49,012 nt of DNA from Alphaproteobacteria bacterium. GTDB lineage: Bacteria; Pseudomonadota; Alphaproteobacteria; UBA6615. The notes below the pieces were generated by a model that was given only the letters and a program-made list of their open reading frames with translations, ran no database searches and was not told the origin of the DNA. The stretch spans positions 1-49,012 of the forward strand of contig JAKUPN010000015.1 of NCBI GenBank assembly GCA_022449545.1. Direction: 5' to 3'. Positions 5,271 to 44,280 of the stretch are shown in pieces (the first letter of the stretch is position 1; each line of letters starts with the position of its first letter). The position numbers were made by a program, and so were the translations under genes.

Positions 5271-6026
5271 TTAATTTTTGTCTACATTTGGGTATTTGAA
5301 TAGATTTCCTTGAGCCGAATCTTCTTTTTCTGCGGCTGCGGGATCTGAAATCTCAGAATTAATTGGCTTAATTAGAGTATCTTCATCATTACTGACTGAG
5401 TTTACTTTTTTTGAAATTTGCCATTTGGTAATAGCTTCGTCCGTTGGTACAGAAACAATGCCACTTAAAATAGATAAATTGGTTTTCCCATAAGTAAGCC
5501 AATTCTTAATATTAGAATCAGATAGAATTACAGGCATACGAGAATGGATTTCTGATAGATCTTTATTAGCCTTGGTCGTAAGTATTGCACACGTTTTTAT
5601 CTCTTCTCCATTTGACGAGATCCAACTCTCCCATAGTCCTGCAAGAGATAAAAAGCCTGAATTAGTAGAAGTGATCCAGAACGGCTGTTTAGATTCGTTC
5701 CATTCATAAAATCCACTTATAGGAATTAGGCACCGTCTTTTGCGATACGCATCTCGAAAACTAGGCTTTTCATGGGCTGTTTCTGCCCTTGCATTTATCA
5801 ACTTTGTTCCCATTGAAGCATCTTTAGCCCACCCAGGAATTAAACCCCACCTAAAATACCCAGCAGTATAATTTTTGTTTAAACCATCATTTGATGAGGT
5901 AATTGATAGAATTGGCTGCGAAGGAGCAATGTTATACCTGGGACGCAAGTTCATAGGTTGAATATTAATTTTATAGAACTGCCTAATCTCTTCCCATGAG
6001 TGAATTAGCGCGAATCGGCCACACAT
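5271..6026 (-). CDS. SRAP-domain abasic-site processing protein (YedK/HMCES family)
   Basis: SRAP proteins form a thiazolidine DNA-protein crosslink with abasic sites in single-stranded DNA and so shield them. All family hallmarks are visible: MCGRFA with catalytic Cys2, the INARAET segment (Asn78), SGFYEW with Glu108, and IHSRMPVIL with His161. These correspond to the known HMCES/YedK active-site residues. Length 251 is typical, and the C-terminal 30 residues are a low-complexity acidic tail. The gene is divergent from nrdA. The 345-base region between them carries a perfect alphaproteobacterial LexA box, which fits the name 'SOS-response-associated peptidase'. The LexA box is about 190 bases from this start and sits nearer the nrdA promoter, so control of SRAP itself is inference. 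Confidence 0.93.
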   Translation of the reverse strand: MCGRFALIHSWEEIRQFYKINIQPMNLRPRYNIAPSQPILSITSSNDGLNKNYTAGYFRWGLIPGWAKDASMGTKLINARAETAHEKPSFRDAYRKRRCLIPISGFYEWNESKQPFWITSTNSGFLSLAGLWESWISSNGEEIKTCAILTTKANKDLSEIHSRMPVILSDSNIKNWLTYGKTNLSILSGIVSVPTDEAITKWQISKKVNSVSNDEDTLIKPINSEISDPAAAEKEDSAQGNLFKYPNVDKN

Positions 6027-6191
6027 TTGTAAATTTTTCCTTAAATACTGATCGTTTCGAAAAAAAATAGATAATGTTTGCTTAGTTAAAACAAAAATGA
6101 AAGTTGATATTAGAAATTAATTGAAATTAACCACTCTTTTTAAAAATGTTTCGAATAATATTCATTAAAATGTAAAAAAAATAGCTAAGGA

Positions 6192-6219
6192 TTGACGAAA
6201 AAATTCAATAGAGTAAGAT
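6192..6219 (+). promoter_or_regulatory. putative sigma-70 promoter for nrdAB
   Basis: TTGACG at 6192-6197 matches the -35 consensus at 5 of 6 positions. TAAGAT at 6214-6219 follows after a 16-base spacer as a weaker -10 (4 of 6). A LexA box abuts the -10 and would cover the start site. The leader to the nrdA ATG would be about 145 bases and includes the two NrdR boxes. Confidence 0.55.
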
Positions 6220-6234
6220 GTTCACGTATTGTTC
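6220..6234 (+). promoter_or_regulatory. LexA (SOS) box, alphaproteobacterial type
   Basis: GTTC (6220-6223), seven bases, GTTC (6231-6234) is a perfect match to the direct-repeat GTTC-N7-GTTC operator known for alphaproteobacterial LexA. It lies immediately after the predicted -10 hexamer, the normal position for a repressor. It is between the divergent SRAP and nrdA genes, both plausible SOS targets. The two TGTTCACG copies (6219-6226 and 6230-6237) are one helical turn apart. Confidence 0.75.
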
Positions 6235-6246
6235 ACGGTGACAGGT

Positions 6247-6262
6247 GGTCAATATTTAGTGT
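6247..6262 (+). promoter_or_regulatory. NrdR box 1
   Basis: This 16-mer matches the published NrdR consensus (acaCwAtATaTwGtgt) at 12 of 16 positions by my count. All the strongly conserved core bases (C, A/T, A, A, T, T, A/T, G) are present, and the right half GTGT is perfect. NrdR is the ATP/dATP-sensing repressor of ribonucleotide reductase genes. This is the upstream member of a pair whose starts are 31 bases apart. Confidence 0.68.
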
Positions 6263-6277
6263 TACACTGGGTACTCG

Positions 6278-6293
6278 CGACAACATGTTGTAG
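6278..6293 (+). promoter_or_regulatory. NrdR box 2
   Basis: The core is a perfect 12-base palindrome, ACAACATGTTGT (6280-6291). It keeps every conserved NrdR core position, although the flanks are divergent (10 of 16 by my count). Its start is exactly 31 bases after box 1. This is the three-turn spacing characteristic of tandem NrdR boxes, so the pair supports both calls. Confidence 0.65.
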
Positions 6294-6371
6294 AAGTTTC
6301 CATATTATTACTCGGAAATCTACTCACAGCATGTGGATGACCTGGTTACCGATCTAAAGGGGGCATTACGT

Positions 6372-8408
6372 ATGGATGGATCTGTGGGCGTTTCGCCTGA
6401 CAAAAGTGTTGTGGATAAAGTGATGAAAACAGAAGAGATTGTGGAAAGTACAGAATCTGATGACCACTTTGTAGATCAGAAAAAAGAATCTGTGGAATCT
6501 AATCAGAATTATCAACCATCTTTGTTTGACGATACAATACTTTCGGGTGAAGCAAATCAAACTACGAAAAAGAAAGACGCCTTATCCGTTTATCAGACGG
6601 AAAGAGTAAAAATATTTATCGATCCATCACGAGATGAGAATCTGACTGCATTTGGCAGAGAAACATTAGAAGATCGTTATTTGCTCCCTGATGAAGCAGG
6701 AGAACCACAAAAACTTTTTGCCAGAGTGGCCTCTCATTACGCTGATAATTCTGAACATGCACAACGTATTTACGATTATATTTCTAATCTCTGGTTTATG
6801 CCTGCCACACCTGTTTTGTCTAATGGCGGTTCAAAACGTGGTCTTCCTATTTCCTGTTTTTTGAATGAAGCATCCGATTCGTTAGAAGGAATAGTTGATT
6901 TGTGGAATGAAAATGTTTGGTTGGCCGCTCGCGGAGGAGGTATAGGTAGCTATTGGGGAAATCTTCGATCTATTGGTGAACAGGTAGGAAGAAATGGTAA
7001 AACATCTGGAGTGGTGCCCTTCATACGCGTAATGGACTCCCTGACTTTAGCAATCAGTCAAGGGTCGTTGCGTCGAGGATCTGCGGCCGTTTATTTACCT
7101 ATTTCCCACCCTGAAATTGAAGAGTTTGTTGAAATGCGACGTCCGACTGGTGGCGATCCAAATCGCAAAACCCCTAATTTACATCACGGAGTTCTAATTT
7201 CTGACGACTTCATGCGTGCTGTAGAAGATGATGACGATTGGGCTTTGCTAAGCCCTAAAGATGGAGCACCCATTTCTCGTGTATCCGCTCGCTCACTTTG
7301 GATTCGTGTCTTGACCGCTAGGGTTGAAACCGGGGAGCCTTACATAATTTATTCTGACACTGTAAATAAGAGTATCCCTGAGCATCATAAATTAGCCGGG
7401 CTCAGCGTTAAAACCTCTAACCTTTGTTCTGAGATAACATTGCCAACTGGCATTGACCACCATGGTAAAGACCGAACAGCCGTATGCTGCCTGTCGTCAC
7501 TAAATTTAGAAAAATTTATTGAATGGAAAAAACATCCGACCTTTATTGAAGACGTAATGAGATTTTTGGATAATGTTCTACAAGATTTCATTGATAATGC
7601 TGCTGATTCATTTAATAGAGCGACTTACTCAGCTATGAGAGAACGTTCAGTCGGCTTAGGTGTGATGGGTTTTCATTCCTTTTTACAAAGTCAGATGGTG
7701 CCATTTGAATCAGCCGTTGCTAAAGGCTGGAACCACAATATGTTTAAACACATTAAAACAAACGTTGATAATGCCTCACAAACATTAGCCAAAGAACGGG
7801 GGGCGTGTCCTGATGCAGAAGATTACGGAATTATGGAGCGTTTCTCGAATAAAATAGCCATAGCCCCCACTGCCTCGATCTCTATAATTTGTGGTGGCTC
7901 TTCCCCTGGCATCGAACCTATTGCCGCAAATAGCTACACACACAAAACACTATCTGGATCATTTAACGTTCGTTCTAAAGCACTTAAGAAGCTTTTATCT
8001 GAAAAAGATAAAAATATAGATGAGGTCTGGTCTTCAATAACAACTAATGAAGGATCTGTTCAACATCTTGATTTCTTATCAGAAGAAGAAAAGGCAGTAT
8101 TCAAAACAGCTTTCGAAATTGACCAAAGGTGGGTGATTGATTTAGCTGCAGATAGAGCTGATCAAGTTTGTCAATCTCAATCGCTAAATGTCTTCCTTCC
8201 TGCTGATGTACATAAAAGAGATCTTCATCAAATACACTACCAAGCATGGAAAAAAGGAGTAAAAAGTCTTTATTACTGTCGCTCCAAATCTCTACAACGA
8301 TCGGAAAGTGTTGCAGCGATCCCTGTGGTAGAGTTAACTGCTGATGAAGAGGCCGATCGCGCTGCCGCGAGCCACAATGATTATGAAGAATGCCTCTCTT
8401 GCCAATAA
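6372..8408 (+). CDS. nrdA: ribonucleoside-diphosphate reductase class Ia, alpha subunit
   Basis: NrdA reduces ribonucleoside diphosphates to deoxy forms using a thiyl radical. I chose ATG 6372 because AAAGGGGG ends 8 bases upstream. The frame can be extended to a GTG at 6333, but that has no ribosome-binding site. The 678-residue product shows ISCFL (Cys162) and AVCC (Cys372/373) for the redox pair, and NLCSE (Asn350, Cys352, Glu354) for the catalytic triad. The C-terminal CLSC tail passes electrons from thioredoxin or glutaredoxin. The first 70 residues are acidic and low in complexity, and I do not see an ordinary ATP-cone there. If so, overall activity control may be weak or use another mechanism. 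nrdB follows 103 bases later. Upstream lie one LexA box and two NrdR boxes. Confidence 0.97.
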   Translation: MDGSVGVSPDKSVVDKVMKTEEIVESTESDDHFVDQKKESVESNQNYQPSLFDDTILSGEANQTTKKKDALSVYQTERVKIFIDPSRDENLTAFGRETLEDRYLLPDEAGEPQKLFARVASHYADNSEHAQRIYDYISNLWFMPATPVLSNGGSKRGLPISCFLNEASDSLEGIVDLWNENVWLAARGGGIGSYWGNLRSIGEQVGRNGKTSGVVPFIRVMDSLTLAISQGSLRRGSAAVYLPISHPEIEEFVEMRRPTGGDPNRKTPNLHHGVLISDDFMRAVEDDDDWALLSPKDGAPISRVSARSLWIRVLTARVETGEPYIIYSDTVNKSIPEHHKLAGLSVKTSNLCSEITLPTGIDHHGKDRTAVCCLSSLNLEKFIEWKKHPTFIEDVMRFLDNVLQDFIDNAADSFNRATYSAMRERSVGLGVMGFHSFLQSQMVPFESAVAKGWNHNMFKHIKTNVDNASQTLAKERGACPDAEDYGIMERFSNKIAIAPTASISIICGGSSPGIEPIAANSYTHKTLSGSFNVRSKALKKLLSEKDKNIDEVWSSITTNEGSVQHLDFLSEEEKAVFKTAFEIDQRWVIDLAADRADQVCQSQSLNVFLPADVHKRDLHQIHYQAWKKGVKSLYYCRSKSLQRSESVAAIPVVELTADEEADRAAASHNDYEECLSCQ

Positions 8409-8511: not shown

Positions 8512-9471
8512 ATGTCGTTATTGGAAGAAAGAATTCAATATAAACCTTTTAAATATCCATGGGCGTATGATGCCTGGCTACAACAGCAACGAGTTCATTG
8601 GCTCCCAGAAGAAGTTCCTCTGGCTGATGATGTCAAAGACTGGCATAGGGTATTAACCGCTGGTGAGAGAAATCTACTTACACATATTTTCCGATTCTTT
8701 ACTCAATCAGATGTCGAAGTAAATAATTGTTATATGAAGCACTATTCCCAAGTGTTTAAGCCTACCGAAGTTCAGATGATGTTATCTGCATTTTCTAATA
8801 TAGAGACAGTGCATATAGCTGCTTATTCTCACCTTTTAGATACTATTGGCATACCGGAAAGTGAATACTCAGCCTTTCTAAAATACCAGCAGATGAAAGA
8901 TAAGTATGACTACCTTCAGGAGTTTAATGTCGATTCAAAAGAGAATATAGCAAAAACTCTAGCTATGTTCGGAGCGTTTACCGAAGGTCTTCAATTATTT
9001 GCGAGTTTTGCAATATTGATGAACTTTCCCAGGTTTAATAAAATGAAAGGGATGGGACAAATCGTAACCTGGTCTGTTCGTGACGAGAGCCTTCATACAG
9101 CTTCAATTATAAAACTTTTTCGTACTTTTGTAGACGAAAACCCAGAAGTCAGAACCGAAGAATTGGAACGTGATCTATACATCAATTGCGAAACAGTAGT
9201 GACACACGAAGACGCATTTATTGACCTTGCTTTTGAGTTAGGTCCGATTGAAGGTTTAAATGCTCATGAAGTCAAACAATATATAAGATACATTGCTGAC
9301 CGAAGACTTATGCAGCTTGGATTACAGCCCGTACATCGTATAGAAAAAAATCCACTTCCCTGGATGGAGGAAATGCTCAACGGAGTGGAGCATGCTAATT
9401 TCTTCGAAAATCGTGCAACAGAATATTCTAAAGCCGCAACCCAAGGAAATTGGGAAGAAGCATTCGAATAG
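8512..9471 (+). CDS. nrdB: ribonucleoside-diphosphate reductase class Ia, beta subunit
   Basis: NrdB holds the dimetal-tyrosyl radical cofactor that starts catalysis in NrdA. The 319-residue protein carries all metal ligands: Asp67 (TQSDVEV), Glu98 and His101 (ETVH), Glu158 (FTEGLQ), and Glu192 and His195 (DESLH). Tyr105 four residues after the first His is at the radical-tyrosine position, so this is a standard Tyr-radical subunit rather than a Tyr-less class Ic type. The start ATG has only a weak purine-rich site (GTGAGAA). It is expressed with nrdA, and both presumably respond to the LexA/NrdR region. Confidence 0.97.
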   Translation: MSLLEERIQYKPFKYPWAYDAWLQQQRVHWLPEEVPLADDVKDWHRVLTAGERNLLTHIFRFFTQSDVEVNNCYMKHYSQVFKPTEVQMMLSAFSNIETVHIAAYSHLLDTIGIPESEYSAFLKYQQMKDKYDYLQEFNVDSKENIAKTLAMFGAFTEGLQLFASFAILMNFPRFNKMKGMGQIVTWSVRDESLHTASIIKLFRTFVDENPEVRTEELERDLYINCETVVTHEDAFIDLAFELGPIEGLNAHEVKQYIRYIADRRLMQLGLQPVHRIEKNPLPWMEEMLNGVEHANFFENRATEYSKAATQGNWEEAFE

Positions 9472-40089: not shown

Positions 40090-41139
40090 ATGGCGACTGC
40101 GCTTATAGCTGGAGCACTAGGAGTTGTGGGTCGAGCCCTAGTTGAACATTTAGAGAACGACCCTGAATGGGATGTCATCGGCTTGTCCCGCAGGTCACCT
40201 GATTTTGAAACTTCAGCAAATTTTATCTCCGTAGACCTCCTCAATTTATCTGACTGTAAAGAAAAACTAACGTCATTGACTAATGTCTCTCATGTTTTTT
40301 TCACACCCTATTCTGCACGAGAAAGCTTTGCAGATGAAGTTCTTCCAAATTTAGAAATGCTTAAAAACCTGATGACTGTCATCGAAGAGACTGCCTCCAA
40401 GTTACAACATGTACAACTTATGCTTGGTGCCAAATGGTACGGAGTTCAGTTTGGTGCTCCATATAAAACCCCTGCCAAAGAAAGTGATCCTCGTCATATG
40501 CCTCCTAATTTTTATTATAATCAATTGGACTGGCTCACAGAGAAACAAAAAGGGTGTAAGTGGACTTGGTCAGCTCTTCTTCCCCATGGAATTTGGGGAT
40601 TTTCGGTAGGAAGTGAAATGAATATGCTGACTTCACTGGCTGTATACGCATCAATCAGCAAGCATTATGGAATTCCATTGAACTTTCCAGGCAATCCAGA
40701 CTTATATCACTCTGTATATCAAATTGTTGATGTTTCTCTTCTATCACGAGCAATGGTTTGGGCAGCTACAACTCCAACAGCAGCTAATGAAGCTTTCAAT
40801 ATTACCAATGGTGATTTCACAAGATGGTGTCATCTCTGGCCAAGGATCGCAGACTTTTTTGAAATGGAAGTGGGAGAGATTAGACAGGTAAATCTGCAAT
40901 CCTTAATGTCAGACAAAGAAAACGTCTGGAAAGAAATTTGCGATAAACACAACCTTAATTATTATAAGGTTAATGAATTAGCTACCTGGCGTTTCATGGA
41001 TTATGCCTTCAATAATGGCTTTGATCAGATGTCATGCCTTAATAAGATTCGAAAAGCAGGATGGAATGGTCTTTTGGATACTGAGGAAACTATTACATTG
41101 CAGTTAAAAAACATGAGAAACCAAAAAATTATCCCTTAA
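40090..41139 (+). CDS. PRISE-type SDR reductase (progesterone 5-beta-reductase/iridoid synthase-like), copy 1
   Basis: A 349-residue extended SDR. ALIAGALGVVGRALVEHL (about 4-21) is the Rossmann glycine motif, and LSRRSPDF supplies Arg residues for NADPH. In place of the SDR Tyr-x-x-x-Lys there are PRISE-like features: a Lys in LGAKWYGVQ (Lys115) and a Tyr in NFYYNQLDWL (Tyr142/143). PRISE enzymes reduce the C=C of enones or iridoid dialdehydes with NADPH. In bacteria the natural substrates are mostly unknown. GGAG lies 10 bases before the ATG. A close paralogue follows 15 bases later and then an M14 peptidase, so three genes share one transcript. Confidence 0.88.
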   Translation: MATALIAGALGVVGRALVEHLENDPEWDVIGLSRRSPDFETSANFISVDLLNLSDCKEKLTSLTNVSHVFFTPYSARESFADEVLPNLEMLKNLMTVIEETASKLQHVQLMLGAKWYGVQFGAPYKTPAKESDPRHMPPNFYYNQLDWLTEKQKGCKWTWSALLPHGIWGFSVGSEMNMLTSLAVYASISKHYGIPLNFPGNPDLYHSVYQIVDVSLLSRAMVWAATTPTAANEAFNITNGDFTRWCHLWPRIADFFEMEVGEIRQVNLQSLMSDKENVWKEICDKHNLNYYKVNELATWRFMDYAFNNGFDQMSCLNKIRKAGWNGLLDTEETITLQLKNMRNQKIIP

Positions 41140-43440: not shown

Positions 43441-44280
43441 TTACTCATCTATAACTGTATTACGTAACACTCCTATTTTTGAAATCTCCACCTCAATTAT
43501 ATCTCCTTGTTTCATAAATAATTTTGGAGTTCTTCCATTCCCAACTCCCGCTGGTGTGCCTGTTGCAATTATATCTCCCGCAACAAGAGGAGTGAAAGAA
43601 GAAACATACGAGATAATATAGGGTATTGAGTATATTAATAAATCTGTAGTGCTATTTTGAACTATCTCTCCATTTAATCTAGTGGTCAGTTCCAGCGATG
43701 CCGGATCAGGTATCTCATCTGAAGTTACCATCCAGGGACCTAAAGGCCCTGTTTTGTGAAAATTTTTTCCTGCAGTTACTGAATGTCTCTGATAATCTCT
43801 AACACTTGCATCAAGAAAGCACGTGTAACCTGCGATGTGAGATAAAGCTTCAGATTCTGCTATATGTCGACCGCTCTTACCTATAATTAAGGTTAGCTCT
43901 CCTTCAAAATCAAAATGTTCAGACACACGAGGTCTCACTATAGGTTCATCATGAGCAACCAATGTATTAGTTAGTCGAGAAAATAGAGTAATGTGTTCGG
44001 GCATATCTCGAACAAATTCTTCGACGTGATCCTTATAATTTAACCCCGCACAAATGATTTTGTCAGGATCGGGTATAACTGGAAGCAGCTTTACATCTTC
44101 TAATTGATAATCGGCTTCATTATTGTTAGCTATCGCAGCAATTTCATCCATTGCACCAGCAATTAAAGCTTCTCGTAAACTTTTATGAACACATTTTCGT
44201 CCAACATCTACTAAACCTCTATCAACATCAAAAACCCCGAACGATTCTCCATTAGCATCTCTAAAACTTAAAATTTTCAT
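43441..44280 (-). CDS. fumarylacetoacetate hydrolase family protein
   Basis: A 279-residue FAH-fold enzyme. Metal ligands are in FDFEGELTLIIG (two Glu, about 121-131) and FLDASVRDYQ (Asp, about 157). ICAGLNYKDHVEE (about 77-89) and GDIIATGTPAGVGNGRTPKLFMKQGD (about 238-263) are family signatures. Members hydrolyse or decarboxylate acylpyruvates, oxaloacetate, or 2-hydroxyhepta-2,4-dienedioate from aromatic rings. It is 20 bases downstream of an acyl-CoA dehydrogenase pair. This suggests a pathway that ends in C-C cleavage of a CoA- or acid intermediate, perhaps ring or side-chain degradation. Confidence 0.92.
   Translation of the reverse strand: MKILSFRDANGESFGVFDVDRGLVDVGRKCVHKSLREALIAGAMDEIAAIANNNEADYQLEDVKLLPVIPDPDKIICAGLNYKDHVEEFVRDMPEHITLFSRLTNTLVAHDEPIVRPRVSEHFDFEGELTLIIGKSGRHIAESEALSHIAGYTCFLDASVRDYQRHSVTAGKNFHKTGPLGPWMVTSDEIPDPASLELTTRLNGEIVQNSTTDLLIYSIPYIISYVSSFTPLVAGDIIATGTPAGVGNGRTPKLFMKQGDIIEVEISKIGVLRNTVIDE

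What the first reader, a model, noticed from the sequence alone, without database searches (positions are those of the whole stretch)
6192..6234. Perfect alphaproteobacterial SOS box on the nrdAB promoter, beside an SRAP gene
GTTC-N7-GTTC lies directly after a -35/-10 pair and between nrdA and the divergent abasic-site protein. LexA would repress dNTP synthesis and possibly SRAP together. This links replication-fork protection and nucleotide supply in one divergent SOS locus.
Basis: partly seen in the sequence, partly recalled or inferred. Interest (0 to 1): 0.7.

Follow-up and report, generated by a model that had tools for sequence, protein, structure and literature searches.

The report
DNA-damage switch on nucleotide-making genes
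In a group of uncultured marine bacteria, the genes that make DNA building blocks carry a conserved landing site for the DNA-damage repressor LexA next to the sites of their usual controller NrdR, so damage probably raises nucleotide supply directly, which E. coli and cholera bacteria are reported not to do through LexA.

Summary
In detail: GTTCACGTATTGTTC at 6220-6234 follows TTGACG-N16-TAAGAT, between nrdAB and a divergent SRAP gene. One motif alone is weak evidence (55 genome hits against 48 for the reversed pattern), but conservation is decisive. The organism's lexA and recA promoters, and those of its family, carry the same GTTC-N7-GTTC. The nrdA box is present in 21 of 21 family leaders; its tetrads are invariant in 24 of 24 sequences while the seven bases between them vary. 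Outside the family, 15 exact boxes lie within 500 bp upstream of the nrdA match in 89 leaders (shuffled mean 1.0). A conserved RTGACA after the box looks like a second -35. Most likely LexA represses nrdAB together with NrdR, and damage lifts the LexA part. Joint control of SRAP is not supported: SRAP has no LexA box in 7 of 7 relatives where it is not divergent from nrdA. The papers read report damage induction of nrdAB as LexA-independent in E. coli, and no LexA binding to nrdA in V. cholerae. LexA binding here is inferred, not shown.

The parts
6192..6219 (+). candidate promoter P1: TTGACG, 16-bp spacer, TAAGAT
   Evidence: Only promoter-like match in 5990-6400 (shuffles give 1.8 on average, so weak alone); conserved as TTGAC..TAnnAT in most family leaders.
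6220..6234 (+). LexA operator (SOS box) GTTCACGTATTGTTC
   Evidence: Exact match; tetrads invariant in 24/24 family leaders while N7 varies; same motif on lexA and recA.
6238..6243 (+). candidate -35 of a second promoter P2 (GTGACA)
   Evidence: RTGACA conserved 3 bp after the box in nearly all family leaders and in Pelagibius, where ATGACA-N16-TATAGA is read. In the window itself the -10 is poor (TGTTAC at 16 bp, or TACACT at 19 bp).
6247..6262 (+). NrdR box 1 GGTCAATATTTAGTGT
   Evidence: Weight matrix trained on leaders outside the family: best pair in the leader, 24.7 bits, none of 300 simulated sequences reach it; conserved in the family.
6278..6293 (+). NrdR box 2 CGACAACATGTTGTAG, 31 bp after box 1
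   Evidence: The 15-bp gap lies in the optimal range reported for NrdR (PMC12051234).
6332..6340 (-). DnaA-box-like site (TGTGGATGA, reverse TCATCCACA)
   Evidence: TGTGGAT or ATCCACA at comparable places in many but not all leaders; binding not tested.
6372..8408 (+). nrdA, ribonucleotide reductase alpha subunit, start revised to ATG 6372
   Evidence: NF006577 E 7.8e-302; MDGS start shared with relatives, GGGGG upstream.
8512..9471 (+). nrdB, ribonucleotide reductase beta subunit
   Evidence: PF00268 E 6e-77; NF007186 E 5e-172.
5271..6026 (-). divergent SRAP (abasic-site protein) gene; neighbour, LexA control not supported
   Evidence: PF02586 E 5.4e-69; divergent from nrdA in 14 family genomes.

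Best explanation
GTTC-N7-GTTC at 6220-6234 is a LexA operator of the nrdAB operon. It lies between two candidate promoters, just after the -10 of P1 and 3 bp before the -35 of P2. Downstream come two NrdR boxes. Under normal growth NrdR limits nrdAB according to the dATP/ATP balance and LexA adds a second block at the promoter. When RecA is activated by single-stranded DNA, LexA cleaves itself and that block is lifted, so dNTP supply rises for repair and fork restart. Shown here: the motif, its conservation, the matching motif on lexA and recA, and the NrdR pair at fixed spacing. Inferred: LexA and NrdR binding, repression, the transcription starts and damage induction.
For: lexA (TIGR00498) and recA of this genome carry GTTC-N7-GTTC in their upstream intergenic regions. 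All family lexA and recA loci with at least 821 bp upstream do so too, except recA L114. The box is in 21/21 family nrdA leaders. In 24 distinct leaders all eight tetrad bases are invariant while N7 runs 54-96%. Outside the family: 15 exact boxes in the 500 bp upstream of the nrdA match in 89 leaders, shuffled mean 1.0, maximum 4; 17 against 3 for the reversed motif over the whole stretches. The 27-bp LexA-to-NrdR distance recurs in families f88, f155 and f87. NrdR is encoded in the genome (TIGR00244).
Against: No binding or expression data. The nrdA box has A or C after the first GTTC in most leaders where lexA and nearly all recA boxes have T, so affinity could differ. Conservation continues into ACGRTGACA, which may belong to another element. 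No lexA was found in G016 (98% complete), G018 or G004, yet they keep the box; these are draft genomes. Most nrdA leaders outside the family lack an exact box.
Confidence: 0.85

Rival explanations
1. The GTTC repeats are part of a longer operator, GTTC-N7-GTTCACGRTGACA, of another unidentified regulator, and the likeness to the LexA motif is accidental.
For: Conservation extends 9-10 bp past the second GTTC; the 25-bp pattern with this tail is found mostly upstream of nrdA in Alphaproteobacteria.
Against: L075 (G004) keeps both GTTC and loses the tail. Other-family leaders carry the tetrads without ACGRTGACA. The tail reads as a -35 at a constant place with a -10 16-18 bp on. The same tetrads sit on lexA and recA.
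Confidence: 0.1
2. One LexA box represses both nrdAB and the divergent SRAP gene.
For: SRAP is divergent from nrdA in 14 family genomes and in one outside (L086); SRAP genes are often next to SOS polymerase operons (PMC3765255). In G009 and G004 the box is only 94-119 bp from the SRAP start.
Against: Here the box is 194 bp from the SRAP start and directly on the nrdA promoters. 7/7 genomes with SRAP elsewhere have no LexA box within 400 bp. SRAP has its own NrdR pair in G008, G014 and G010.
Confidence: 0.2
3. Chance motif without function.
For: The bare 8-base motif is not enriched genome-wide (55 against 48).
Against: About 0.9% chance in this region, 21/21 conservation, invariant tetrads with variable spacer, enrichment in other families.
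Confidence: 0.02

Closest known systems
Alphaproteobacterial LexA regulon with GTTC-N7-GTTC operators (Caulobacter crescentus)
   Same: Same direct-repeat operator on lexA, recA and a target promoter; consensus stated in PMC4211646, PMC12700426 and PMC9578287.
   Different: The Caulobacter SOS papers that could be read do not name nrdAB (word search of main texts); the primary regulon paper (da Rocha 2008) is not held.
NrdR-controlled nrdAB promoter (E. coli, Listeria, Streptococcus)
   Same: Two NrdR boxes 31 bp centre to centre upstream of nrd genes (PMC12051234).
   Different: Here a LexA operator starts 27 bp before NrdR box 1, conserved across several families.
Damage induction of nrdAB in E. 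coli and V. cholerae
   Same: nrdAB rises after DNA damage or fork arrest.
   Different: There it is LexA-independent (E. coli, PMC2500167) and LexA did not bind the nrdA promoter in gel shift (V. cholerae, PMC5963079).

Membership tests
LexA operator of the alphaproteobacterial type | GTTC-N7-GTTC direct repeat | tested here: met
   Exact at 6220-6234.
LexA operator of the alphaproteobacterial type | Same motif on the organism's own lexA and recA promoters | tested here: met
LexA operator of the alphaproteobacterial type | Genome encodes a LexA repressor | tested here: met
   TIGR00498 156 bits, cut-off 111.
LexA operator of the alphaproteobacterial type | Conserved at the same promoter in relatives | tested here: met
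   21/21 family leaders; 24/24 invariant tetrads.
LexA operator of the alphaproteobacterial type | LexA binds and damage induces the gene | not testable with these tools
   Needs gel shift and expression data.
NrdR-regulated nrd promoter | Two NrdR boxes at an integer number of helical turns | tested here: met
   6247-6262 and 6278-6293, 31 bp apart.
NrdR-regulated nrd promoter | Genome encodes NrdR | tested here: met
   TIGR00244 172 bits, cut-off 125.
SRAP as a LexA-regulated gene in this lineage | SRAP keeps a LexA box when separated from nrdA | tested here: not met
   0 of 7 genomes.
DnaA-regulated nrdAB promoter (E. coli type) | DnaA boxes in the leader | tested here: inconclusive
   TGTGGATGA at 6332-6340, one mismatch to TTATNCACA; similar words in many but not all leaders; no background test made.

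The most novel reading that the evidence does not exclude
In several alphaproteobacterial families nrdAB is a directly LexA-repressed SOS gene through a conserved joint LexA-NrdR control region with fixed 27-bp geometry, so dNTP supply is wired into the SOS response there, in contrast to E. coli and Vibrio; and the abasic-site protein SRAP is tied to the same dNTP circuit through NrdR boxes in some members.
Probability: 0.6. Interest if true: 0.6.

Novelty: new variant of a known kind. Interest (0 to 1): 0.48.

Why it matters
dNTP levels set repair speed and mutation rate. In E. coli the rise of ribonucleotide reductase after fork arrest is LexA-independent and its mechanism was reported as unknown (PMC2500167). 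A conserved LexA operator at a fixed distance from NrdR boxes gives a lineage where the SOS response would set dNTP supply directly, testable in cultured Pelagibius.

Tried and rejected
A first scan seemed to show the box missing in several relatives, including the closest; those loci were on the minus strand, and after reorientation all 21 have it. A seven-codon upstream reading frame spanning the box (M-F-x-x-C-S-R-stop) was considered from the sequence and dropped: its ATG abuts the P1 -10, so P1 transcripts would not contain it, and its start codon is lost in L074 and L078. The ACGRTGACA tail was first suspected to be another operator; a -35 of P2 fits better. Other exact boxes in the genome mostly lie inside genes; the second window hit at 40144 is coding sequence. 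A motif match in L163 has no nrdA after it.

Full report
Observation. The exact direct repeat GTTCACGTATTGTTC is at 6220-6234, right after TTGACG-N16-TAAGAT (6192-6219), in the 345-bp region between nrdAB and a divergent SRAP gene. A chance match in such a region has probability about 0.009. Across the 2.25-Mb genome the bare motif occurs 55 times, 48 for the reversed control, so the motif by itself proves nothing.

Does this organism use this motif for LexA? Yes. Of the exact sites only five lie outside predicted genes: nrdA, lexA (box at C43:44023, gene at 44104), recA (C13:2648, gene at 2817), one before a 166-aa ORF without a Pfam match and one before an EamA transporter. In the family, lexA and recA loci with enough upstream sequence carry the box, recA L114 being the exception. 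LexA passes the TIGR00498 cut-off.

Is the nrdA box conserved? One search gave 21 family nrdA loci; all 21 carry the box in the leader. With three more leaders found by motif (hence biased) the 24 distinct sequences show all eight tetrad bases invariant, N7 positions at 54-96% and the P1 spacer region at 55% on average. This pattern fits selection on the two half-sites. One named close relative is MarineAlpha12_Bin1 (nrdA 97% identical, L143).

How far does it go? The box with its tail also lies upstream of nrdA in Pelagibius marinus and another Pelagibius, and in P. litoralis. In a sample of 89 nrdA leaders from other alphaproteobacterial families, 15 exact boxes lie within 500 bp upstream of the nrdA match; shuffling gives 1.0 on average and at most 4. 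The region counted can include some N-terminal coding sequence, and at least the G342 hit (-27) is probably coding. Eight hits are in the same orientation as here. Most leaders have no exact box, so this is a feature of some families, not of the class.

What was missed. Two NrdR boxes, 6247-6262 and 6278-6293, are 31 bp apart. A matrix built only from leaders outside the family scores this pair at 24.7 bits, and none of 300 simulated sequences reaches it. NrdR is encoded. Optimal NrdR spacing of 15-17 bp between boxes is reported in PMC12051234; here the gap is 15 bp. The LexA box starts 27 bp before NrdR box 1 in all 21 family leaders and in G110, G313, G355 and G109 (three other families); it is 25 bp in G395, 36 in G181 and about 48-50 in Pelagibius.

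Promoters. P1 ends where the LexA box starts. A conserved RTGACA lies 3 bp after the box. In Pelagibius it is followed at 16 bp by TATAGA, with the NrdR pair further on, which argues that RTGACA is a -35 (P2) and not part of the NrdR or LexA sites. In the window the P2 -10 is poor. Which promoter is used is not known.

SRAP. SRAP was found in 21 of 24 family genomes and is divergent from nrdA in 14 (coordinates). In G007 and G018 it lies on the same strand downstream of the nrd region, preceded by the end of the DASS transporter gene, so it could be read from the nrdA promoter. Where SRAP is not divergent, 0 of 7 have a LexA box within 400 bp. In G008, G014 and G010 SRAP has its own NrdR pair at 31-bp spacing; in this window it has none. 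A link of SRAP to the dNTP circuit is suggested, a LexA link is not.

Mechanism. LexA most likely blocks RNA polymerase at P1 and P2; RecA-stimulated cleavage relieves it; NrdR keeps adjusting expression to the nucleotide balance. Shown: motif, conservation, geometry, presence of both regulators. Inferred: binding, repression, induction.

Known work. The Caulobacter motif is GTTC-N7-GTTC (PMC4211646, PMC12700426, PMC9578287). E. coli nrdAB induction is LexA-independent with unknown mechanism (PMC2500167). V. cholerae LexA did not bind nrdA (PMC5963079). The SRAP genomic-association paper does not mention nrd (PMC3765255). The library is partial and the main Caulobacter regulon paper is not held, so novelty is provisional.

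Noticed in passing
6333-6372: The listed GTG start of nrdA (6333) is probably wrong; ATG 6372 after GGGGG gives the MDGS start shared with relatives.
   Followed up: yes
L261, L266, L267 (about 80 and 49 bp before the SRAP start): SRAP has its own NrdR box pair at 31-bp spacing in genomes G008, G014 and G010; single strong NrdR-like boxes precede SRAP in G005, G011, G017, G021 and G023.
   Followed up: partly
L018:1501-1515: Another exact intergenic GTTC-N7-GTTC box (GTTCTAATTTAGTTC) lies before a 166-aa ORF with no Pfam match; possible further SOS gene.
   Followed up: no
L268, L272: In G007 and G018 SRAP follows the end of the DASS transporter gene that lies downstream of nrdB in the window, on the same strand as nrdA.
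   Followed up: partly
L128:1501-2292: recA of G018 is broken by stops and shifted stretches and no lexA was found there; looks like draft-assembly errors.
   Followed up: partly
1573-1863: Short ORF on the minus strand matching only part of a serine recombinase domain (PF07508), probably a remnant.
   Followed up: no
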